64,000 nt of DNA from Gemmatimonadota bacterium (GCA_003134685.1 PLCA01000002.1:521966-585965), one strand, 5' to 3'. Shown: positions 36,616 through 46,060, numbered from the stretch's first letter. Numbers and translations are program-made. Notes: a model not told the origin generated them from the sequence alone.

Positions 36616-36720
36616 AGGTGACTGGCCTGCTGGGCTAATGGTTATGATGTACTCCAATGTACGGCGCTTCGCCGGTTAGGTTCCACTGGAATCTGTCTCT
36701 TGCCAACGGCGGTATGTCGA

Positions 36721-37227
36721 ATGACGAAGGTTACGCGACCCTTGCAGAAAGACAGGCACTACTGGCTTCTCAAGTCGGATGCCGATTCGTTCTCCTTCGA
36801 GGATCTCTGGAAATTGCCCACCCGGACCACTCACTGGGACGGTGTGCGGAATTTTCAAGCGCGGAATTTCATGCGCGACGACATGAAAAAGGGCGATCTC
36901 GCCTTCTTCTACCATTCCGGCGGGGCTGATCCGGGTATAGTGGGAATCGTCGAGATCGTGCGTGAAGGATATCCGGACCACACCGCGCTCGACCCGAAGG
37001 ATCCGCACTACGATCCGAGAAGCAAGAGTGGGGAATCCTACTGGTCGATGGTGGACATCCAGGCCATCGAGCGCTTTCCCCGCCACGTCCCCCTGAGTGA
37101 GCTGCGGACGAAGCCCGAGCTCGAGGGAATGTCGCTCCTTCAAAAGGGGAACCGCCTCTCCGTTCAGAAAGTCGGAGCAGCGGAGTGGAATGCCGTGTTG
37201 AGGCTGGCCAAGGAGACAACCGGCTGA
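36721..37227 (+). CDS. EVE domain protein
   Basis: 168 aa from ATG 36721. The EVE (thymocyte nuclear protein 1) pattern is clear: YWLLKSDADSFSFEDL, WDGVRNFQARNFMRDDMKKGDLAFFYHSG, VGIVEIVREGYPD, WSMVDIQAIERFPRHVPLSELR. EVE domains resemble PUA/YTH folds and bind modified bases in nucleic acids. The gene stands alone between divergent neighbours. Confidence 0.92.
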   Translation: MTKVTRPLQKDRHYWLLKSDADSFSFEDLWKLPTRTTHWDGVRNFQARNFMRDDMKKGDLAFFYHSGGADPGIVGIVEIVREGYPDHTALDPKDPHYDPRSKSGESYWSMVDIQAIERFPRHVPLSELRTKPELEGMSLLQKGNRLSVQKVGAAEWNAVLRLAKETTG

Positions 37228-37296: not shown

Positions 37297-39414
37297 ATGA
37301 CGGAATCCGTCTCACTCCTGGTGTCGGGAATACCCGCGGAGATCGTCCGCGAAATCGGGCTGAGGATCCGTGACGTCGTCATCAGCGAATTTGCGAACGC
37401 ACAGCAGATGGGCGATGCCGCTGCTCGCGGCGAAGCCCGCCTGGTCCTTCTCAGTGACACTCTTCCTGTTGAGGATTCCGTCGAGGTTGCCCGTCGCGCC
37501 AAGGACGCGAACGACGATGTTCGGATAGCGTACGTGATCTCGATGCAGCAGGCGGAAACAGCACTACGTGCGTTAAAAGAAATCCATGTAGATCGTTTCT
37601 TTCTGTCTCCGGTGGACACGGAAGAGATGCTGCGAGAGCTCGCGAAAATGGGTGGCGTCGATGTCCTCCCACCTCACGCATCGCATGGCGAGCACATTGC
37701 GGCCGCTGTAGTCGCGGCGTGGGATCGCACCCGTGCATCCACCTTGGAGAAGATCGACAAGCTGGACGACGCGGCGATCGCGCTTCTCGACAACGGCCTG
37801 TCCACCGATCTGAGAGCGGTGGCCCAGCGGGAGGCGCAGGACATCGCCAAGGTGGCGGCCCAATTTGGATTCCAGAAGGGAGAGCGCGTCGCTCGTGAGC
37901 TCGCGGATCGGTTCGCGCATGGATCACTCACTCCGATCGACGGCGTTGCCATCTCGAAGCAGCTCCTGTCGCTGCGAGAGAGCCTGGTGGGCGCCCCGTC
38001 TCCTCCGTCCGCGCTGCAACAGCCGACCGGTTCGTCGCCGGCCGAGTCGGCCCTGCCGACGTCAACGGCCTCCGGAGCGGTATCCGACGATTTCTCCCTC
38101 GAAGGCCGCAGGATTCTCGTCGTTGACGACGAGCCGATGATATCCCGCGGCCTGACCACTCTCCTCGGAAAGCGGGGAATGGCAGTGACGGCCGTGAACG
38201 ACCCGCTTCGATTCTGGACTGCGCTCGACGAGACGAAGCCGAATCTGATTCTGCTCGATCTCGAGATGCCGAGGATCAGCGGCACCGAGCTGTGCCGCGT
38301 GGTGAGAAGCGATTCCCGCTGGAGCGAGCTGCCCGTGATTTTTCTGACGGGCCACACGGACCAGGCGAGTGTGCAGCGGGTGTTTGCGGCGGGCGCGGAC
38401 GACTACGTCGGCAAGCCGTTCGTCCCGGCCGAGCTGTTGATGCGCATCGAGAACCGCCTCAACGGAGTGAAGGCGCGGCGCGCCCCGGTGGAGACGGATC
38501 CGCTGACGGGTCTGCCGATAGCGCACAAAGCGACGGAGCAAATCGACCGCTTTTTGCGGCTGGCACGGAGAAAATCTGATCCGTATTCGATCGCCGTGCT
38601 TCAGGTCGACGCCTTCGCAAGCCTCGCCAGCACATTCGGTCGCGGCACCGGCGATGTCGTATTGCGCGCCATCGGTGAGCTGCTGCCAAAATCCTTTCGC
38701 GCCGAGGACATTGTCGGCTGGTGGGGCGGGGCGGATTTCACGATCGGCATGTACGGATGCACCAAGGAGTACGCCGCGATCAAGCTCACTCAGGTCTTGT
38801 CGAAAATCGCGGATCAGAATTTTCTTTCGGAAGATGGACGGAGGGTTCACGTCGCCTGCAGCGGCGGAGTTTCACAGTACCAGACCGATGGAGATTCCGT
38901 CACCGCGATGCGGGAGGCGGCGCTGAAGGCTCTCGAGCAAGTCAGAGCGACTGGTGGGGTCAGAACGACCGGCGGCGTAGTCCGCATCGGCATCTCAGGG
39001 TTGAAAGCCATGGGACCGATGACGCGTCGCGTGGACGTCGCCATCGTTGACGATGATACGGCGCTGGTGTCCCTGCTGCAGCACGCAATGGAGAGTCGTA
39101 ATCTCCGCGTCGCCACGTTTGCCGACGGAGAGATCGCGGTGGCCGCGCTAACCGGAACCCCACCGGAGGTGCAGGCATCCATAATCCTGCTTGGCGTCGA
39201 CATTCCGGCACTGAATGGGCTCGACGTGCTGCGCCGGCTCAAGACCGGCGAAATAACGAGATCGAGCAGCGTGGTGATGCTGACATCCCGCACCGGCGAG
39301 CGCGACGTACTCGCCGCCCTCGAGCTTGGCGCCGCCGACCACATCGCCAAGCCGTTCAGCGTTCCGGTCCTCATGCACAAGGTCCGCGCGATGTTGAGGC
39401 AGAGCCAGGCATGA
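37297..39414 (+). CDS. Multi-receiver regulator with degenerate GGDEF domain
   Basis: 705 aa. Domains in order: REC-like 1-115; helical Hpt-like segment ~135-210 lacking a phospho-His; canonical REC 271-390 (DD at 277-278, phospho-acceptor D321, K373); GGDEF-type domain ~400-560 whose active motif is GGADF (477-481); REC 579-700 in which the acceptor position is Gly633 (LLGVDIP). Only one receiver looks phosphorylatable and the cyclase motif is degenerate. This suggests a scaffold or c-di-GMP-independent switch. It is coupled to the next gene by ATGA. Confidence 0.85.
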   Translation: MTESVSLLVSGIPAEIVREIGLRIRDVVISEFANAQQMGDAAARGEARLVLLSDTLPVEDSVEVARRAKDANDDVRIAYVISMQQAETALRALKEIHVDRFFLSPVDTEEMLRELAKMGGVDVLPPHASHGEHIAAAVVAAWDRTRASTLEKIDKLDDAAIALLDNGLSTDLRAVAQREAQDIAKVAAQFGFQKGERVARELADRFAHGSLTPIDGVAISKQLLSLRESLVGAPSPPSALQQPTGSSPAESALPTSTASGAVSDDFSLEGRRILVVDDEPMISRGLTTLLGKRGMAVTAVNDPLRFWTALDETKPNLILLDLEMPRISGTELCRVVRSDSRWSELPVIFLTGHTDQASVQRVFAAGADDYVGKPFVPAELLMRIENRLNGVKARRAPVETDPLTGLPIAHKATEQIDRFLRLARRKSDPYSIAVLQVDAFASLASTFGRGTGDVVLRAIGELLPKSFRAEDIVGWWGGADFTIGMYGCTKEYAAIKLTQVLSKIADQNFLSEDGRRVHVACSGGVSQYQTDGDSVTAMREAALKALEQVRATGGVRTTGGVVRIGISGLKAMGPMTRRVDVAIVDDDTALVSLLQHAMESRNLRVATFADGEIAVAALTGTPPEVQASIILLGVDIPALNGLDVLRRLKTGEITRSSSVVMLTSRTGERDVLAALELGAADHIAKPFSVPVLMHKVRAMLRQSQA

Positions 39415-40457
39415 TCAGCAGGCAGCTCCTCAACATAGTAATGCTGGTGGAGATCGGACTCCTGGTACTCGCGGTCTGTCTCTTCTTTGCGCACGGCCTC
39501 TGGCTCTTTTTCTACGAACGTCGGCTCGCGCGCCTGACGGAAGCAGCGCGTGACTCGCTCGCGCATCTGGCCACGCGCGGAACCGTGAACGTCGAGGAGA
39601 TCGAAGCTCTCCGCCGGCTTCCGCACGATGTGCAGGTAATCGCGTTCCTCGAGATATCGCGTCACCTGAGCGGATCAGGAAAGGAAAGACTCAGTTTCGT
39701 CGCGCTCCAGGTGGGGGTGGTGGATCGCGCCCGGAAGTTGTGCGAGAGCCGCAGCTGGGCGCGGCGTCTTCGCGGCGCTCGCATCCTGTCGCGCCTGGAT
39801 GTAGTTGACCCACTGGTCCAGCGACTGCTGTCGGATCCCCACCCGGCGGTGCGCGCACAAGCGGCGGAATGGGCCGCCGCTCAGCCGTCGGTCGCGGTGA
39901 TCTCCGCCATGTTGGCCTTGCTGGCGGACCCCGCGACGCAGGCGCGCTTTGCGGTGCAGAATGCGCTCCTGCGCATGGGCAGTGTCGTGGCAGGGCCACT
40001 CGCTACTTTCCTGGAGAGAAATTCCGGGCGAGCGGCGGAAGCGGGTCTTCGCGTCGCCGAATCGCTCGCGGGGCCAACATTCGGGCAGGCCGGGCTGCGT
40101 CTGTCGCGTACCGCGGATATAGGCGTTCGGATCGCGGCGGCGAAGCTGTTGGGCGCGGTCGGCGATGCTGCCGGGGCCGAACGACTGATCGAGCTGCTGG
40201 ATGATAGTGACTCTAGCGTGAGAGCCGCTGCGGCGCAGGGCCTCGGTCGGATGCAGCACTGGAAGGCGGCATCACTATTGGCGCATCGCCTGCGCGACTC
40301 GGCCTGGAGAGTTCGGCGCGCGGCAGGTCTCGCCCTTCGATCGATTGGTGCGCCGGGTGTGCTGTTCCTGCGGCGGGCGCTCAAGGAAGACGACGCGTTC
40401 GCGGCTGACATGGCGCAGCAGGTACTCGATCTCCCCGCCGCGGCGGCATCCGTATGA
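39411..40457 (+). CDS. Membrane-anchored HEAT-repeat protein
   Basis: 348 aa. One N-terminal membrane helix (IVMLVEIGLLVLAVCLFFAHGLWLFF) is followed by ~8 HEAT-like helical pairs (ILSRLDVVDPLVQRLLSDPHPAVRAQ; LLGAVGDAAGAERLIELLDD; AAQGLGRMQHWKAASLLAHRL). HEAT arrays are protein-interaction scaffolds. Four-base overlaps with the regulator before it and the glycosyltransferase after it imply a fixed-stoichiometry complex at the inner membrane. Confidence 0.85.
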   Translation: MISRQLLNIVMLVEIGLLVLAVCLFFAHGLWLFFYERRLARLTEAARDSLAHLATRGTVNVEEIEALRRLPHDVQVIAFLEISRHLSGSGKERLSFVALQVGVVDRARKLCESRSWARRLRGARILSRLDVVDPLVQRLLSDPHPAVRAQAAEWAAAQPSVAVISAMLALLADPATQARFAVQNALLRMGSVVAGPLATFLERNSGRAAEAGLRVAESLAGPTFGQAGLRLSRTADIGVRIAAAKLLGAVGDAAGAERLIELLDDSDSSVRAAAAQGLGRMQHWKAASLLAHRLRDSAWRVRRAAGLALRSIGAPGVLFLRRALKEDDAFAADMAQQVLDLPAAAASV

Positions 40458-41884
40458 GCGGCGTGTTGCAGACCGGCGTCAGCCAGATTCTGCTCAAAGG
40501 CCAGTTCGTCGTGCTCTTGTATTTCCTTGCCGTGAACGGGTGGTATCTGATCCTGCTCCTCAGCTCGTTGTTGGAGCTGCGCCGCCACATGCTCCTCATC
40601 GCGGACGAGAGCCGCCATCTCCTGCTAAGCTCGACGCTCTCGCCGACGATCTCCATTCTCGCGCCGGCGTACAACGAGGAAGCGACGATCGATGCGAGCT
40701 TGCGTGCGCTCCTGGCGCTCCAGTACCCGAATCTCGAGGTGATCGTGGTGAGCGATGGGTCGAAGGACCGGACCGTCCAGGTTCTCGTCGAACGGTTCGA
40801 TCTGGTACCGGTGAAAACGATCTACGAGCAGCGCATCAAGACGAAACCGGTGCGGTCACTCTATCGCTCCTCGACGTACCCCTCGCTCGTCGTCGTCGAC
40901 AAGGACAATGGAGGAAAGGCCGACGCCCTGAACGTTGGGCTCAGCTTCGCGCGCGGAGAGCTGGTGTGTGCGATGGATGCCGACACTCTGATCGAAGCAG
41001 ACGGCCTTCAGCGCATGATACGCCCTTTCCTCTACGGAACGGACGTCGTCGCGACCGGCGGGACAATTCGAGTCGTCAACGGATCCGAAGTGAAATTCGG
41101 CCGCGTCGTCAAGACGTCCGTTCCCACCAACCTGCTGGCTGGAGTTCAGGTGGTCGAATACCTCCGCGCGTTTCTGTTCGGCCGTCTCGGATGGAATCGG
41201 CTCGGCGGGAACATCATCATCTCCGGCGCCTTTGGACTTTTTCAGCGCGACGCAGTGGTGAACGCGGGAGGCTATCTCCACGATACGGTCGGCGAAGACA
41301 TGGAGCTGGTGCTGCGCCTGAAAAGGCTCTCGTACGAACGCGGCGGCCCAGGAACGATCGCGTTCGTTCCCGATCCGGTGGCGTGGACCGAAGTCCCGGA
41401 GTCGGCAAAGGTGCTCGGGCGACAGCGGGATCGTTGGCATCGTGGCCTGGCTGACGTGCTATGGAGACACCGCCGGATGTTGTTCAATCCCCGGTATGGC
41501 GTGACGGGCCTCTTTGTTTTCCCGTATTACGCGTTCGTAGAGTTGTTGGCTCCCGTGATTGAGGCCGCCGGCCTGATCGCTTTGGCTCTCGGGCTCGCGA
41601 CGGGCGCGGTCGACTGGACCTTCGCCGGACTCTTCTATCTCACTGCCTACGGGCTCGGCACGGCGCTCACGGCATTCACGCTGATTCTTGAGGATCTGAG
41701 CTTTCACCGATACGAGACATTCCGCGACCGTACCCTGCTTTTCTGGTGGGCACTCGTCGAAAACCTCGGCTACCGGCAGATGACGGTGTACTGGCGGCTC
41801 CGTGGCCTCTGGAAATTCCTGCGCGGAAAAAAGGATTGGGGGAGCATGGAGCGAAAAGGCTTCCATCCCCTGACAGTGTCATAA
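40454..41884 (+). CDS. Processive family 2 glycosyltransferase (PgaC/BcsA-like)
   Basis: 476 aa. N-terminal helix (~17-40), cytosolic GT-A domain with SILAPAYNEE, VSDGS (99-103), NGGKADALN, DAD 175-177, the TVGEDMEL acceptor region (281-282) and QRDRW (324-328), then three to four C-terminal helices. This is the complete signature of a processive beta-glycan synthase. No PilZ domain is visible. The product is probably an exported polysaccharide; the polymer is unknown. Confidence 0.9.
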   Translation: MSGVLQTGVSQILLKGQFVVLLYFLAVNGWYLILLLSSLLELRRHMLLIADESRHLLLSSTLSPTISILAPAYNEEATIDASLRALLALQYPNLEVIVVSDGSKDRTVQVLVERFDLVPVKTIYEQRIKTKPVRSLYRSSTYPSLVVVDKDNGGKADALNVGLSFARGELVCAMDADTLIEADGLQRMIRPFLYGTDVVATGGTIRVVNGSEVKFGRVVKTSVPTNLLAGVQVVEYLRAFLFGRLGWNRLGGNIIISGAFGLFQRDAVVNAGGYLHDTVGEDMELVLRLKRLSYERGGPGTIAFVPDPVAWTEVPESAKVLGRQRDRWHRGLADVLWRHRRMLFNPRYGVTGLFVFPYYAFVELLAPVIEAAGLIALALGLATGAVDWTFAGLFYLTAYGLGTALTAFTLILEDLSFHRYETFRDRTLLFWWALVENLGYRQMTVYWRLRGLWKFLRGKKDWGSMERKGFHPLTVS

Positions 41885-41971
41885 GCGGGGTAGTGTGCCA
41901 CCGCCTTGCCCAGCGAACGAATACCTGCCAATCTGTGGGTGAGGGAGAGAAAGTCTCAACCGGAGAAACCG

Positions 41972-42487
41972 ATGCTACGAGTTTCCTCGATCATTGCGGC
42001 AGGTCTCGCCGCTTCTGCCATTGCCTGCGCGTCACACCCTCCGTCGACCGAAGTGACGGCCAGTGATTTCGACCTCAACCCCCTCGTTGGTGAATGGCGT
42101 GGGGATTACAGCAGCACCCAAACCGGAAGAACGGGCACGATCGCTTTCACGCTCCGAGCGGGAGAGTCCTCCGCGTCAGGCAACATCGTGATGATTCCGC
42201 GCGCCGACTCGTTGCTGTCGCCGGTCGAGCGTGAGCTGGTGACTAATGTCTCGGCCCCGGGGAGAACGGTGCTCACGATTCACTTCGTCAGGAAGGAAGG
42301 CGGCAATCTGAGCGGCACGCTCGAGCCGTACCCGGATCCTGATTGCGCCTGCCCGGTCACGACGACGTTTCAGGGATCTTTTCGCGATGCGCGCACGATC
42401 GAGGGAACATTCAGCACCGTTCCATCCCAGCCGGGACGCAGCGTCACCGGCGGGACATGGAAGGTCACACGGGTGAAGCGGCTCTAG
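41972..42487 (+). CDS. Exported lipoprotein-like protein, paralogue of 58355
   Basis: 171 aa. N-terminal signal ends at Cys (AASAIACASH), a probable lipobox. The mature part is beta-rich: DFDLNPLVGEWRGDY, GRTGTIAFTLRAG, LTIHFVRKEGG, DPDCACPVTTTFQG, RTIEGTFST, GGTWKVTRVKRL. It shares the same motifs throughout with the protein at 58355. No named family is recognised. ATG 41972 follows GGAG. Confidence 0.75.
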   Translation: MLRVSSIIAAGLAASAIACASHPPSTEVTASDFDLNPLVGEWRGDYSSTQTGRTGTIAFTLRAGESSASGNIVMIPRADSLLSPVERELVTNVSAPGRTVLTIHFVRKEGGNLSGTLEPYPDPDCACPVTTTFQGSFRDARTIEGTFSTVPSQPGRSVTGGTWKVTRVKRL

Positions 42488-45110: not shown

Positions 45111-45572
45111 GTGGACTGGTTCGTTAGACGATTCATAAAGTCGGCGCTGGCGTGGCTCGGCATGGGAGTCACCCTGGGTGTCGCAATGGCCGCGCATCCA
45201 ATGTGGATCATTTATCGGCCGGCGCACGTGCACATGAATCTCCTTGGATTTGTCACGATGATGATCTTTGGAGTGGCTTACCATGTCGTGCCACGCTTTT
45301 TCGGGCACCCGCTTTACAGCAAGAGGCTGGCTGGCGGCCATTGGTGGTTCTCGAACGTTGGGCTTGCGTTGATGGTCGTAGGATTCTTCATGGCGCCACA
45401 TGTCGGAGAGCGGAGCGTCCCCGTCCTCGCAACAGGGGGCGTGCTCAGCGCGCTCGGCGCTTTCGCATTCATCTTCAACATCTGGCGCACGATTGACGGG
45501 CCGACGACGCTCCGCCGGATCGAGGATACGCCAGCATCGCGGCGCCCTCCGCTCGTGCCGGGCGATTCCTAG
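45111..45572 (+). CDS. Four-helix heme-copper-oxidase subunit I-like protein
   Basis: 153 aa from GTG 45111. Four membrane helices; a first helix after VRRFIKSALAWL and a second containing PAHVHMNLLGFVTMMIFGVAYHVVPRFFG. These resemble part of CcoN/NorB-type oxidase subunit I, including His residues that could bind heme, but the binuclear-centre half is absent. It is about one third of a real subunit I. It faces the similar protein at 45605. Confidence 0.7.
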   Translation: MDWFVRRFIKSALAWLGMGVTLGVAMAAHPMWIIYRPAHVHMNLLGFVTMMIFGVAYHVVPRFFGHPLYSKRLAGGHWWFSNVGLALMVVGFFMAPHVGERSVPVLATGGVLSALGAFAFIFNIWRTIDGPTTLRRIEDTPASRRPPLVPGDS

Positions 45573-45604: not shown

Positions 45605-46060
45605 TTAGAACTTCTCGCCCTTCGCTTCTCGAATGTGGCTTCCGGCGGAGCGGATTCGGGGCCACATCGTAAAAAAGAAAAGCGCAATTCCTGCGAACTG
45701 CGCCAGGCCACCAATTACGACGGCCGATCGCAGCCACAGAGCCGCGGAGTACCCCCGCGCCAGTTCGCCCACGACACGTCCGCCCGTCCCGATCGTGAGA
45801 AGCCAGTAAGCAGCAGCGGCCAACCTCGGGTCATACTGCTGCTCGCCGCGTTCAGCGCGCGGAAAGAGCCAGAGCGCCACACCCAGGATCATCATCATCA
45901 CGAAGCCCACCAGAATCGCGTGGGTGTGCGCACTTACCTCGTACAGACTTGGGGACCGCAGGAATATCTCGCGTCGAATCAGTATCCTGGTTCCGATCGC
46001 GAGTCCGAGGACCAAAAATGCGATGGCGGTCTTGATGTAGCGGCGGACGAGTGAATGCAC
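45605..46060 (-). CDS. Four-helix heme-copper-oxidase subunit I-like protein, paralogue
   Basis: 151 aa. It opens LVRRYIKTAIAFLVLGLAIG and continues SAHTHAILVGFVMMMILGVALWLFPRA, parallel to the protein at 45111 (RRFIK, AHVH, GFVTMM, VVPR). It has four helices and short loops. The convergent pair are therefore paralogues that may form a membrane heme protein or NO/O2-sensing module. No catalytic partner subunits are nearby. Confidence 0.7.
   Translation of the reverse strand: MHSLVRRYIKTAIAFLVLGLAIGTRILIRREIFLRSPSLYEVSAHTHAILVGFVMMMILGVALWLFPRAERGEQQYDPRLAAAAYWLLTIGTGGRVVGELARGYSAALWLRSAVVIGGLAQFAGIALFFFTMWPRIRSAGSHIREAKGEKF

What the first reader, a model, noticed from the sequence alone, without database searches (positions are those of the whole stretch)
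37297..41884. Degenerate multi-receiver regulator, HEAT scaffold and processive glycosyltransferase as one coupled system
Three genes overlap by 4 bp each. The regulator has one canonical REC, a Hpt-like segment without His, GGADF instead of GGDEF, and a terminal REC with Gly at the phospho-acceptor. The GT2 enzyme lacks a visible PilZ domain. This points to polysaccharide synthesis controlled by protein contacts rather than by local c-di-GMP synthesis, and I know of no named system of this form.
Basis: partly seen in the sequence, partly recalled or inferred. Interest (0 to 1): 0.7.

Follow-up and report, generated by a model that had tools for sequence, protein, structure and literature searches.

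The report
Decayed regulator of HEAT–GT2 polysaccharide synthase
Three coupled genes that probably make and control a cell-surface sugar polymer; they are a lineage-specific, partly decayed version of a widespread but apparently unnamed gene set whose other members keep the phosphate relay and the second-messenger enzyme that this one has lost.

Summary
In detail: three genes (705, 348 and 476 aa) overlap by 4 bp each, with the described residues. The regulator is REC(pseudo)–Hpt-like(Gln181 for His)–REC(Asp321)–GGADF–REC(Gly633). (1) The set is not peculiar to this organism. HEAT lies directly upstream of the GT2 gene in 111/111 distinct loci, and a REC directly upstream of HEAT in 103/109, across at least seven phylum labels. 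(2) The degeneracy is lineage-specific. Relatives keep the Hpt His, the terminal Asp, an intact GG(D/E)EF and often an adjacent CHASE3 hybrid kinase; the window's eight-taxon clade lost the kinase, His and cyclase residues. (3) The GGADF domain cannot plausibly make c-di-GMP, but it keeps the I-site RxxD (RAED468-471, all eight clade members), is under purifying selection (dN/dS about 0.10), and sits in a genome with four intact cyclases and no PilZ protein. So c-di-GMP sensing, as in PssE and YdaK, is the better prediction, and 'protein contacts only' the rival. No name for the module was found in the held papers. Binding, phosphotransfer, protein contacts and the polymer are all untested.

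The parts
37297..39414 (+). Regulator gene, 705 aa: pseudoREC - Hpt-like - REC - GGDEF(GGADF) - REC
   Evidence: (PleD best solved relative)
37306..37656 (+). N-terminal pseudo-receiver (residues 4-120), Ser at the acceptor place
   Evidence: model (alternating strands and helices); alignment
37684..37989 (+). Hpt-like four-helix bundle (residues 130-231); Gln181 (37837-37839) in place of the phosphorylatable His
   Evidence: His present in most relatives
38110..38466 (+). Middle receiver REC2, canonical, Asp321 (38257-38259)
   Evidence: dN/dS 0.05-0.09
38494..38958 (+). Degenerate GGDEF domain (residues 400-554)
   Evidence: (dN/dS 0.10)
38698..38709 (+). Primary I-site RAED (R468-D471), candidate c-di-GMP binding motif, five residues before the signature
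   Evidence: D471 invariant and R468 at least 90% in 26 regulators
38725..38739 (+). Signature GGADF (477-481), catalytically dead form of GG(D/E)EF
39028..39408 (+). Terminal receiver REC3 (residues 578-704), Gly633 (GGC, 39193-39195) at the acceptor
   Evidence: Asp in 3 and Gly in 5 of the 8 clade members
39411..40457 (+). HEAT-repeat protein, 348 aa, one N-terminal membrane helix then a HEAT solenoid
   Evidence: (pLDDT 95)
40454..41884 (+). Membrane GT2 glycosyltransferase, 476 aa, PgaC/IcaA-like; D101, DAD175-177, ED281-282, QRDRW324-328 present

Best explanation
The three genes encode a membrane GT2 polysaccharide synthase (gene 3), a membrane-anchored HEAT-repeat partner (gene 2) and a response regulator (gene 1) whose terminal receiver is encoded next to the HEAT gene. 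The ancestral module takes a phosphate signal from a CHASE3 hybrid kinase through the Hpt domain to the receivers, makes c-di-GMP with its own GGDEF domain, and passes the state of the regulator through the HEAT protein to the synthase. In the window's clade the kinase neighbour, the Hpt His and the cyclase residues are gone. The GGADF domain most likely acts as an I-site receptor that reads c-di-GMP made by the other cyclases of the cell, with Asp321 of REC2 as a possible second input from unlinked kinases. Shown here: anatomy, synteny, lineage-specific losses, purifying selection, I-site retention. Inferred: c-di-GMP binding, contact of the regulator with HEAT and of HEAT with GT2, and that the product is an extracellular polymer of HexNAc-like sugar.
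For: Unit: 4-bp overlaps; HEAT-GT2 adjacency 111/111 and REC-HEAT 103/109 distinct loci; spread over Gemmatimonadota, Actinomycetota, Acidobacteriota, Nitrospirota, Neomarinimicrobiota, Cloacimonadota and Chloroflexota labels, with REC-HEAT-GT2 also in haloarchaeal plasmids. Ancestral inputs: CHASE3-PAS-HisKA-HATPase-REC-REC kinase next to the trio in L036, L037, L038; all 29 loci with an adjacent kinase keep the Hpt His, and the 9 that lost it have none. Dead cyclase: Q/A/A for D/N/(D or E), with four intact cyclases elsewhere, one EAL protein and no PilZ in the genome. I-site: RxxD in 8/8 clade members and in 24 of 33 dead GGDEF rows; dN/dS 0.10 for the GGDEF domain. Precedents: PssE binds c-di-GMP with Kd 0.79 uM through such a domain and is needed for EPS (PMC4125290); YdaK R202A and D205A abolish EPS (PMC5422440).
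Against: I-site retention is not exceptional over all dead GGDEF rows: by weighted conservation R468 ranks 29th and D471 18th of 155 columns, and 9 of 33 dead rows lost it. The Asp of RxxD is conserved in GGDEF domains generally. The secondary I-site Arg of PleD aligns with Gln in the window (by eye). Kinase-His association counts loci, not independent events (about four changes of the His on the tree). Some relatives have no GGDEF at all (Hpt-REC only), so c-di-GMP is not needed by the module in general. No export partner lies in or near the window operon, and the genome has no YaiO match.
Confidence: 0.5

Rival explanations
1. Protein contacts only: the GGADF domain and the acceptor-less domains are structural platforms; the regulator controls HEAT-GT2 by binding, with REC2 phosphorylation as the only switch, and c-di-GMP plays no part.
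For: Cyclase residues, Hpt His and (in five of eight clade members) the terminal Asp are lost while all domains stay under purifying selection; family f2 relatives run with Hpt-REC regulators that have no GGDEF domain; REC2 Asp kept in every clade member in which it could be read.
Against: R and D of the I-site are kept in 8/8 clade members while neighbouring catalytic residues drift; four intact cyclases and no PilZ protein in the genome leave room for non-PilZ receptors.
Confidence: 0.3
2. The regulator is on the way out: the synthase is constitutive or controlled by transcription, and the regulator is retained only because it is co-translated or stabilises the complex.
For: Stepwise loss of kinase, His, cyclase and terminal Asp in one clade; Hpt segment evolves faster (dN/dS 0.30 against L034); six same-genus genomes had no GT2 match.
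Against: dN/dS of GGDEF 0.10, REC2 0.05-0.09 and REC3 0.06-0.10, close to or below the HEAT protein's 0.10-0.22; no stop or frameshift in any clade member whose regulator was read in full.
Confidence: 0.12
3. The GT2 does not make an extracellular polymer but glycosylates a lipid or protein.
For: No export partner or sugar-modifying enzyme next to the window trio; the PgaC/IcaA model matches far below its cut-off (133 against 422 bits).
Against: Cellulose- and PgaC-type GT2 core with D, DxD, ED and QxxRW motifs, largely conserved in 21 aligned relatives; YaiO-type outer-membrane barrel adjacent or fused in relatives; GlmS and sugar nucleotidyltransferase beside a haloarchaeal pair.
Confidence: 0.08

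Closest known systems
Listeria monocytogenes pssA-E with PssE (PMC4125290)
   Same: EPS operon with a glycosyltransferase and an operon-encoded degenerate GGDEF protein with RxxD five residues before the dead signature
   Different: PssE as described has no REC or Hpt; no HEAT protein described in that operon. Binding of c-di-GMP is shown for PssE, not here
Bacillus subtilis yda(J)KLMN with YdaK (PMC5422440)
   Same: Degenerate GGDEF (SDERI) with a functional RxxD I-site needed for EPS made by an operon partner
   Different: YdaK has transmembrane helices and no receivers; partners differ
PelD and BcsE (review PMC8461298)
   Same: Degenerate GGDEF domains reported as c-di-GMP sites of polysaccharide synthases (BcsE via its I-site; PelD in a PilZ-free system)
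   Different: PelD is TM-GAF-GGDEF; BcsE recruits BcsQ/BcsR to a PilZ-bearing synthase; no HEAT protein
PleD-type REC-GGDEF response regulators (1w25, 2v0n, 2wb4)
   Same: Best solved relative of the regulator by sequence and fold
   Different: Window regulator adds an Hpt-like domain and a terminal receiver and has lost the cyclase residues
PgaC/IcaA PNAG synthase (TIGR03937)
   Same: Best curated family for the GT2 (133 bits)
   Different: Far below the 422-bit cut-off; no pga-type partner genes beside it
HEAT-GT2 pairs annotated but not studied: NELoc-2 of Clostridium perfringens (PMC2879425), Planococcus, Legionella, Mesorhizobium and haloarchaeal plasmids
   Same: HEAT gene directly before a GT2 gene
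   Different: Other partners (CotH, YaiO, TPR, stand-alone REC or Hpt); no GGDEF protein listed in the plasmid regions read

Membership tests
I-site c-di-GMP receptor with degenerate GGDEF (PssE/YdaK type) | GGDEF domain with dead active site | tested here: met
   GGADF; metal Asp to Gln436, base Asn to Ala444
I-site c-di-GMP receptor with degenerate GGDEF (PssE/YdaK type) | RxxD I-site five residues before the signature | tested here: met
   RAED 468-471; 8/8 in the clade
I-site c-di-GMP receptor with degenerate GGDEF (PssE/YdaK type) | Binds c-di-GMP | not testable with these tools
   needs a binding assay
I-site c-di-GMP receptor with degenerate GGDEF (PssE/YdaK type) | Encoded in the operon of the synthase it controls | tested here: met
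   4-bp overlaps, synteny; control itself not tested
Active diguanylate cyclase (PleD type) | GG(D/E)EF plus metal and base residues | tested here: not met
Hpt phosphotransfer domain | Four-helix bundle | tested here: met
Hpt phosphotransfer domain | Phosphorylatable His | tested here: not met
   Gln181 in the window; His in most relatives
Phosphorelay-controlled Hpt-REC-(GGDEF)-REC/HEAT/GT2 module (as defined from relatives here) | REC-HEAT-GT2 gene order | tested here: met
Phosphorelay-controlled Hpt-REC-(GGDEF)-REC/HEAT/GT2 module (as defined from relatives here) | Intact terminal acceptor Asp | tested here: not met
   Gly633; Asp in 43, Glu in 11, Gly in 5 of 59 rows
PgaC/IcaA PNAG synthase | Score above the curated cut-off of TIGR03937 | tested here: not met
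   133 against 422 bits
Cellulose synthase BcsA | PilZ domain on the synthase | tested here: not met
   no PilZ in the protein or genome; CelA 51 bits against 699; BcsB was not searched for
Pel system | PelD (TM-GAF-GGDEF) as c-di-GMP receptor | tested here: not met
   regulator has REC and Hpt domains, no GAF by Pfam

The most novel reading that the evidence does not exclude
REC-HEAT-GT2, with or without a YaiO-type barrel, is an ancient and unnamed class of polysaccharide synthase in bacteria and haloarchaea. In it a membrane HEAT protein, not PilZ, is the activating subunit and the docking site of a phosphorylated receiver. The window clade has changed the input from phosphorelay plus own cyclase to c-di-GMP sensing alone.
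Probability: 0.35. Interest if true: 0.7.

Novelty: new variant of a known kind. Interest (0 to 1): 0.5.

Why it matters
The principle (a degenerate GGDEF receptor in an EPS operon) is known. What matters is that a HEAT-GT2 pair with a receiver upstream recurs over many phyla, including cultured Arthrobacter, Patulibacter, Solirubrobacter, Mesorhizobium and haloarchaea, and seems not to have been studied. Nature offers a graded series: regulators with intact relay and cyclase, with Glu or Gly at the terminal acceptor, with dead cyclase and kept I-site, and with no GGDEF at all. That series makes it possible to test what a HEAT protein does to a GT2 synthase and which input drives it.

Tried and rejected
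First reading that Gly633 is private to the window (note 1): wrong; Gly also in L122, L124, L125 and L129, Asp in L034, L035 and L127. Sequencing error as the cause: unlikely, since L122 (98% identical GT2) also has Gly (GGC). Cognate kinase elsewhere in the genome: 83 matches, none with full-length similarity; best 36% over PAS-kinase parts. Link between dead cyclase and loss of terminal Asp by independent pairs: no signal. I-site as the most conserved part of dead GGDEF domains: not so over the whole set. Literature searches for a named HEAT-GT2 system: none found; the library lacks most subscription papers and preprints.

Full report
Observation. The three ORFs are at 37297-39414, 39411-40457 and 40454-41884 on the + strand with ATGA overlaps. 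Gene 1 matches receiver and GGDEF families, gene 2 HEAT, gene 3 GT2; no PilZ at E<=1. The model of gene 1 (mean pLDDT 83, pTM 0.42, so domain folds are reliable but not their arrangement) shows five domains: a receiver-like fold at 5-119, a four-helix bundle at 130-231, a receiver, a GGDEF fold and a receiver; the best solved relatives are PleD structures. The HEAT protein is a long N-terminal helix (4-55) that includes the membrane segment, then a solenoid (pLDDT 95; its fold matches are other helical-repeat proteins). The GT2 has D101, DAD175-177, ED281-282 and QRDRW324-328, largely conserved in relatives.

Residues. The metal Asp is Gln436 and the base Asn is Ala444, so the domain should not make c-di-GMP.

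Synteny. The window's HEAT protein was searched in 200 genomes of the phylum and GT2 in 394 of the class; 108 of 394 had a GT2 match at E<=1e-60. A scan of genome contigs with the GT2 alignment alone gave 80 loci. Over 121 distinct loci, HEAT lies just upstream of GT2 in 111 of 111 with enough sequence, a receiver upstream of HEAT in 103 of 109, Hpt in 85 of 102 and GGDEF in 55 of 102. Thirty-five of the loci (L034-L068) were picked by HEAT and so are biased for that count; the rest were picked by GT2. Phylum labels of metagenome contigs may be wrong in places (for example L126, a short 'Nitrospira' contig 85% identical), but isolates of Arthrobacter, Zafaria, Patulibacter, Solirubrobacter and Frankia carry it. 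HEAT-GT2 pairs also stand on plasmids of Haloarcula, Halosolutus, Mesorhizobium, Legionella, Erythrobacter, Deinococcus and Planococcus, with a receiver, YaiO barrel, TPR or CotH gene beside them, and in the NELoc-2 table of Clostridium perfringens (PMC2879425).

Lineage-specific decay. In a tree of 60 GT2 proteins from loci with a GGDEF domain, the window falls in a clade of eight (100/99). All seven members with a readable Hpt lack the His; all eight have a dead signature (GGADF, GGPDF, GGAEF, SGAEF, GEADF) and all eight keep R(A/G)ED. Just outside, L036 has His, GGEEF with Asp and Asn, and a CHASE3 hybrid kinase beside it; L037 has His and the kinase but GDGEF. Canonical cyclases also occur in L038, L104-L106, L109, Actinobacteria and Neomarinimicrobiota. 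Other clades lost the cyclase on their own (nine changes at least on the tree), two of them with Glu at the REC3 acceptor. Family f2 has only Hpt-REC regulators. So the ancestral form most likely has a phosphorelay; the degeneracy is derived. All 29 Hpt loci with an adjacent kinase keep the His, none of the 9 without His has one (Fisher p 0.011, loci not independent).

Is it decaying junk? No. Against L034 and L035, dN/dS is 0.10 for GGDEF, 0.05-0.09 for REC2, 0.06-0.10 for REC3; the Hpt gives 0.30 and 0.08, and the linkers are higher.

Mechanism. The genome holds four other GGDEF domains with full signatures, one EAL protein and no PilZ protein. A degenerate GGDEF with kept RxxD in an EPS operon is the PssE/YdaK pattern, where binding (Kd 0.79 uM for PssE) and the need for R and D (YdaK) are shown (PMC4125290, PMC5422440). 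I therefore predict c-di-GMP sensing, at about 0.5. The caution is that over all dead GGDEF domains of this family the I-site is only moderately conserved (ranks 18 and 29 of 155), and nine dead rows lost it. The contact-only reading keeps about 0.3. The output step, regulator to HEAT to GT2, is inferred from gene order alone. The polymer is unknown; PgaC similarity is far below cut-off, and GlmS or nucleotide-sugar genes near relatives hint at amino or acidic sugars.

Novelty. The pieces and the principle are known; the module has no name in the papers held, which lack most subscription journals. I file it as a new variant of a known kind.

Noticed in passing
window 39193-39195 and L122, L124, L125, L127, L129, L034, L035: The terminal receiver acceptor alternates between Gly (GGC/GGT) and Asp (GAC) within the window clade, with one of each in three sister groupings; repeated D-to-G change or reversal, unexplained.
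   Followed up: partly
L040, L042, L043, L108, L137, L140, L149, L151-L153, L158: Terminal receiver carries Glu at the acceptor, a possible built-in phospho-mimic; in all but L158 together with a dead GGDEF.
   Followed up: partly
L052:4850-6982, L055:8347-10479, L057:7650-9782: GT2 is fused in frame to a YaiO-like outer-membrane barrel (about 30 bits, cut-off 32); an internal Met at 460 followed by a signal-like stretch suggests internal start. L060 has the barrel as a separate ORF downstream.
   Followed up: partly
L066:2798-6355: KaiC-like ATPase, GAF histidine kinase and receiver directly upstream of HEAT-GT2.
   Followed up: no
L142 and L172 (Patulibacter americanus, NZ_ATUD01000009.1): Two copies of the module lie close together on one contig of a cultured isolate.
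   Followed up: no
window 45111-45572 (+) and 45605-46060 (-): Two small tail-to-tail ORFs that each match a part of COX1 (cytochrome oxidase subunit I).
   Followed up: no
window 36700-37227 and 41906-42487: EVE-domain gene upstream and a lipoprotein-like gene without Pfam match downstream; ORFs of similar size and order flank the trio in L034 and L035.
   Followed up: no
G000 whole genome: No PilZ match in a genome with at least four intact GGDEF domains and one EAL protein, so its c-di-GMP receptors are probably of other kinds.
   Followed up: partly
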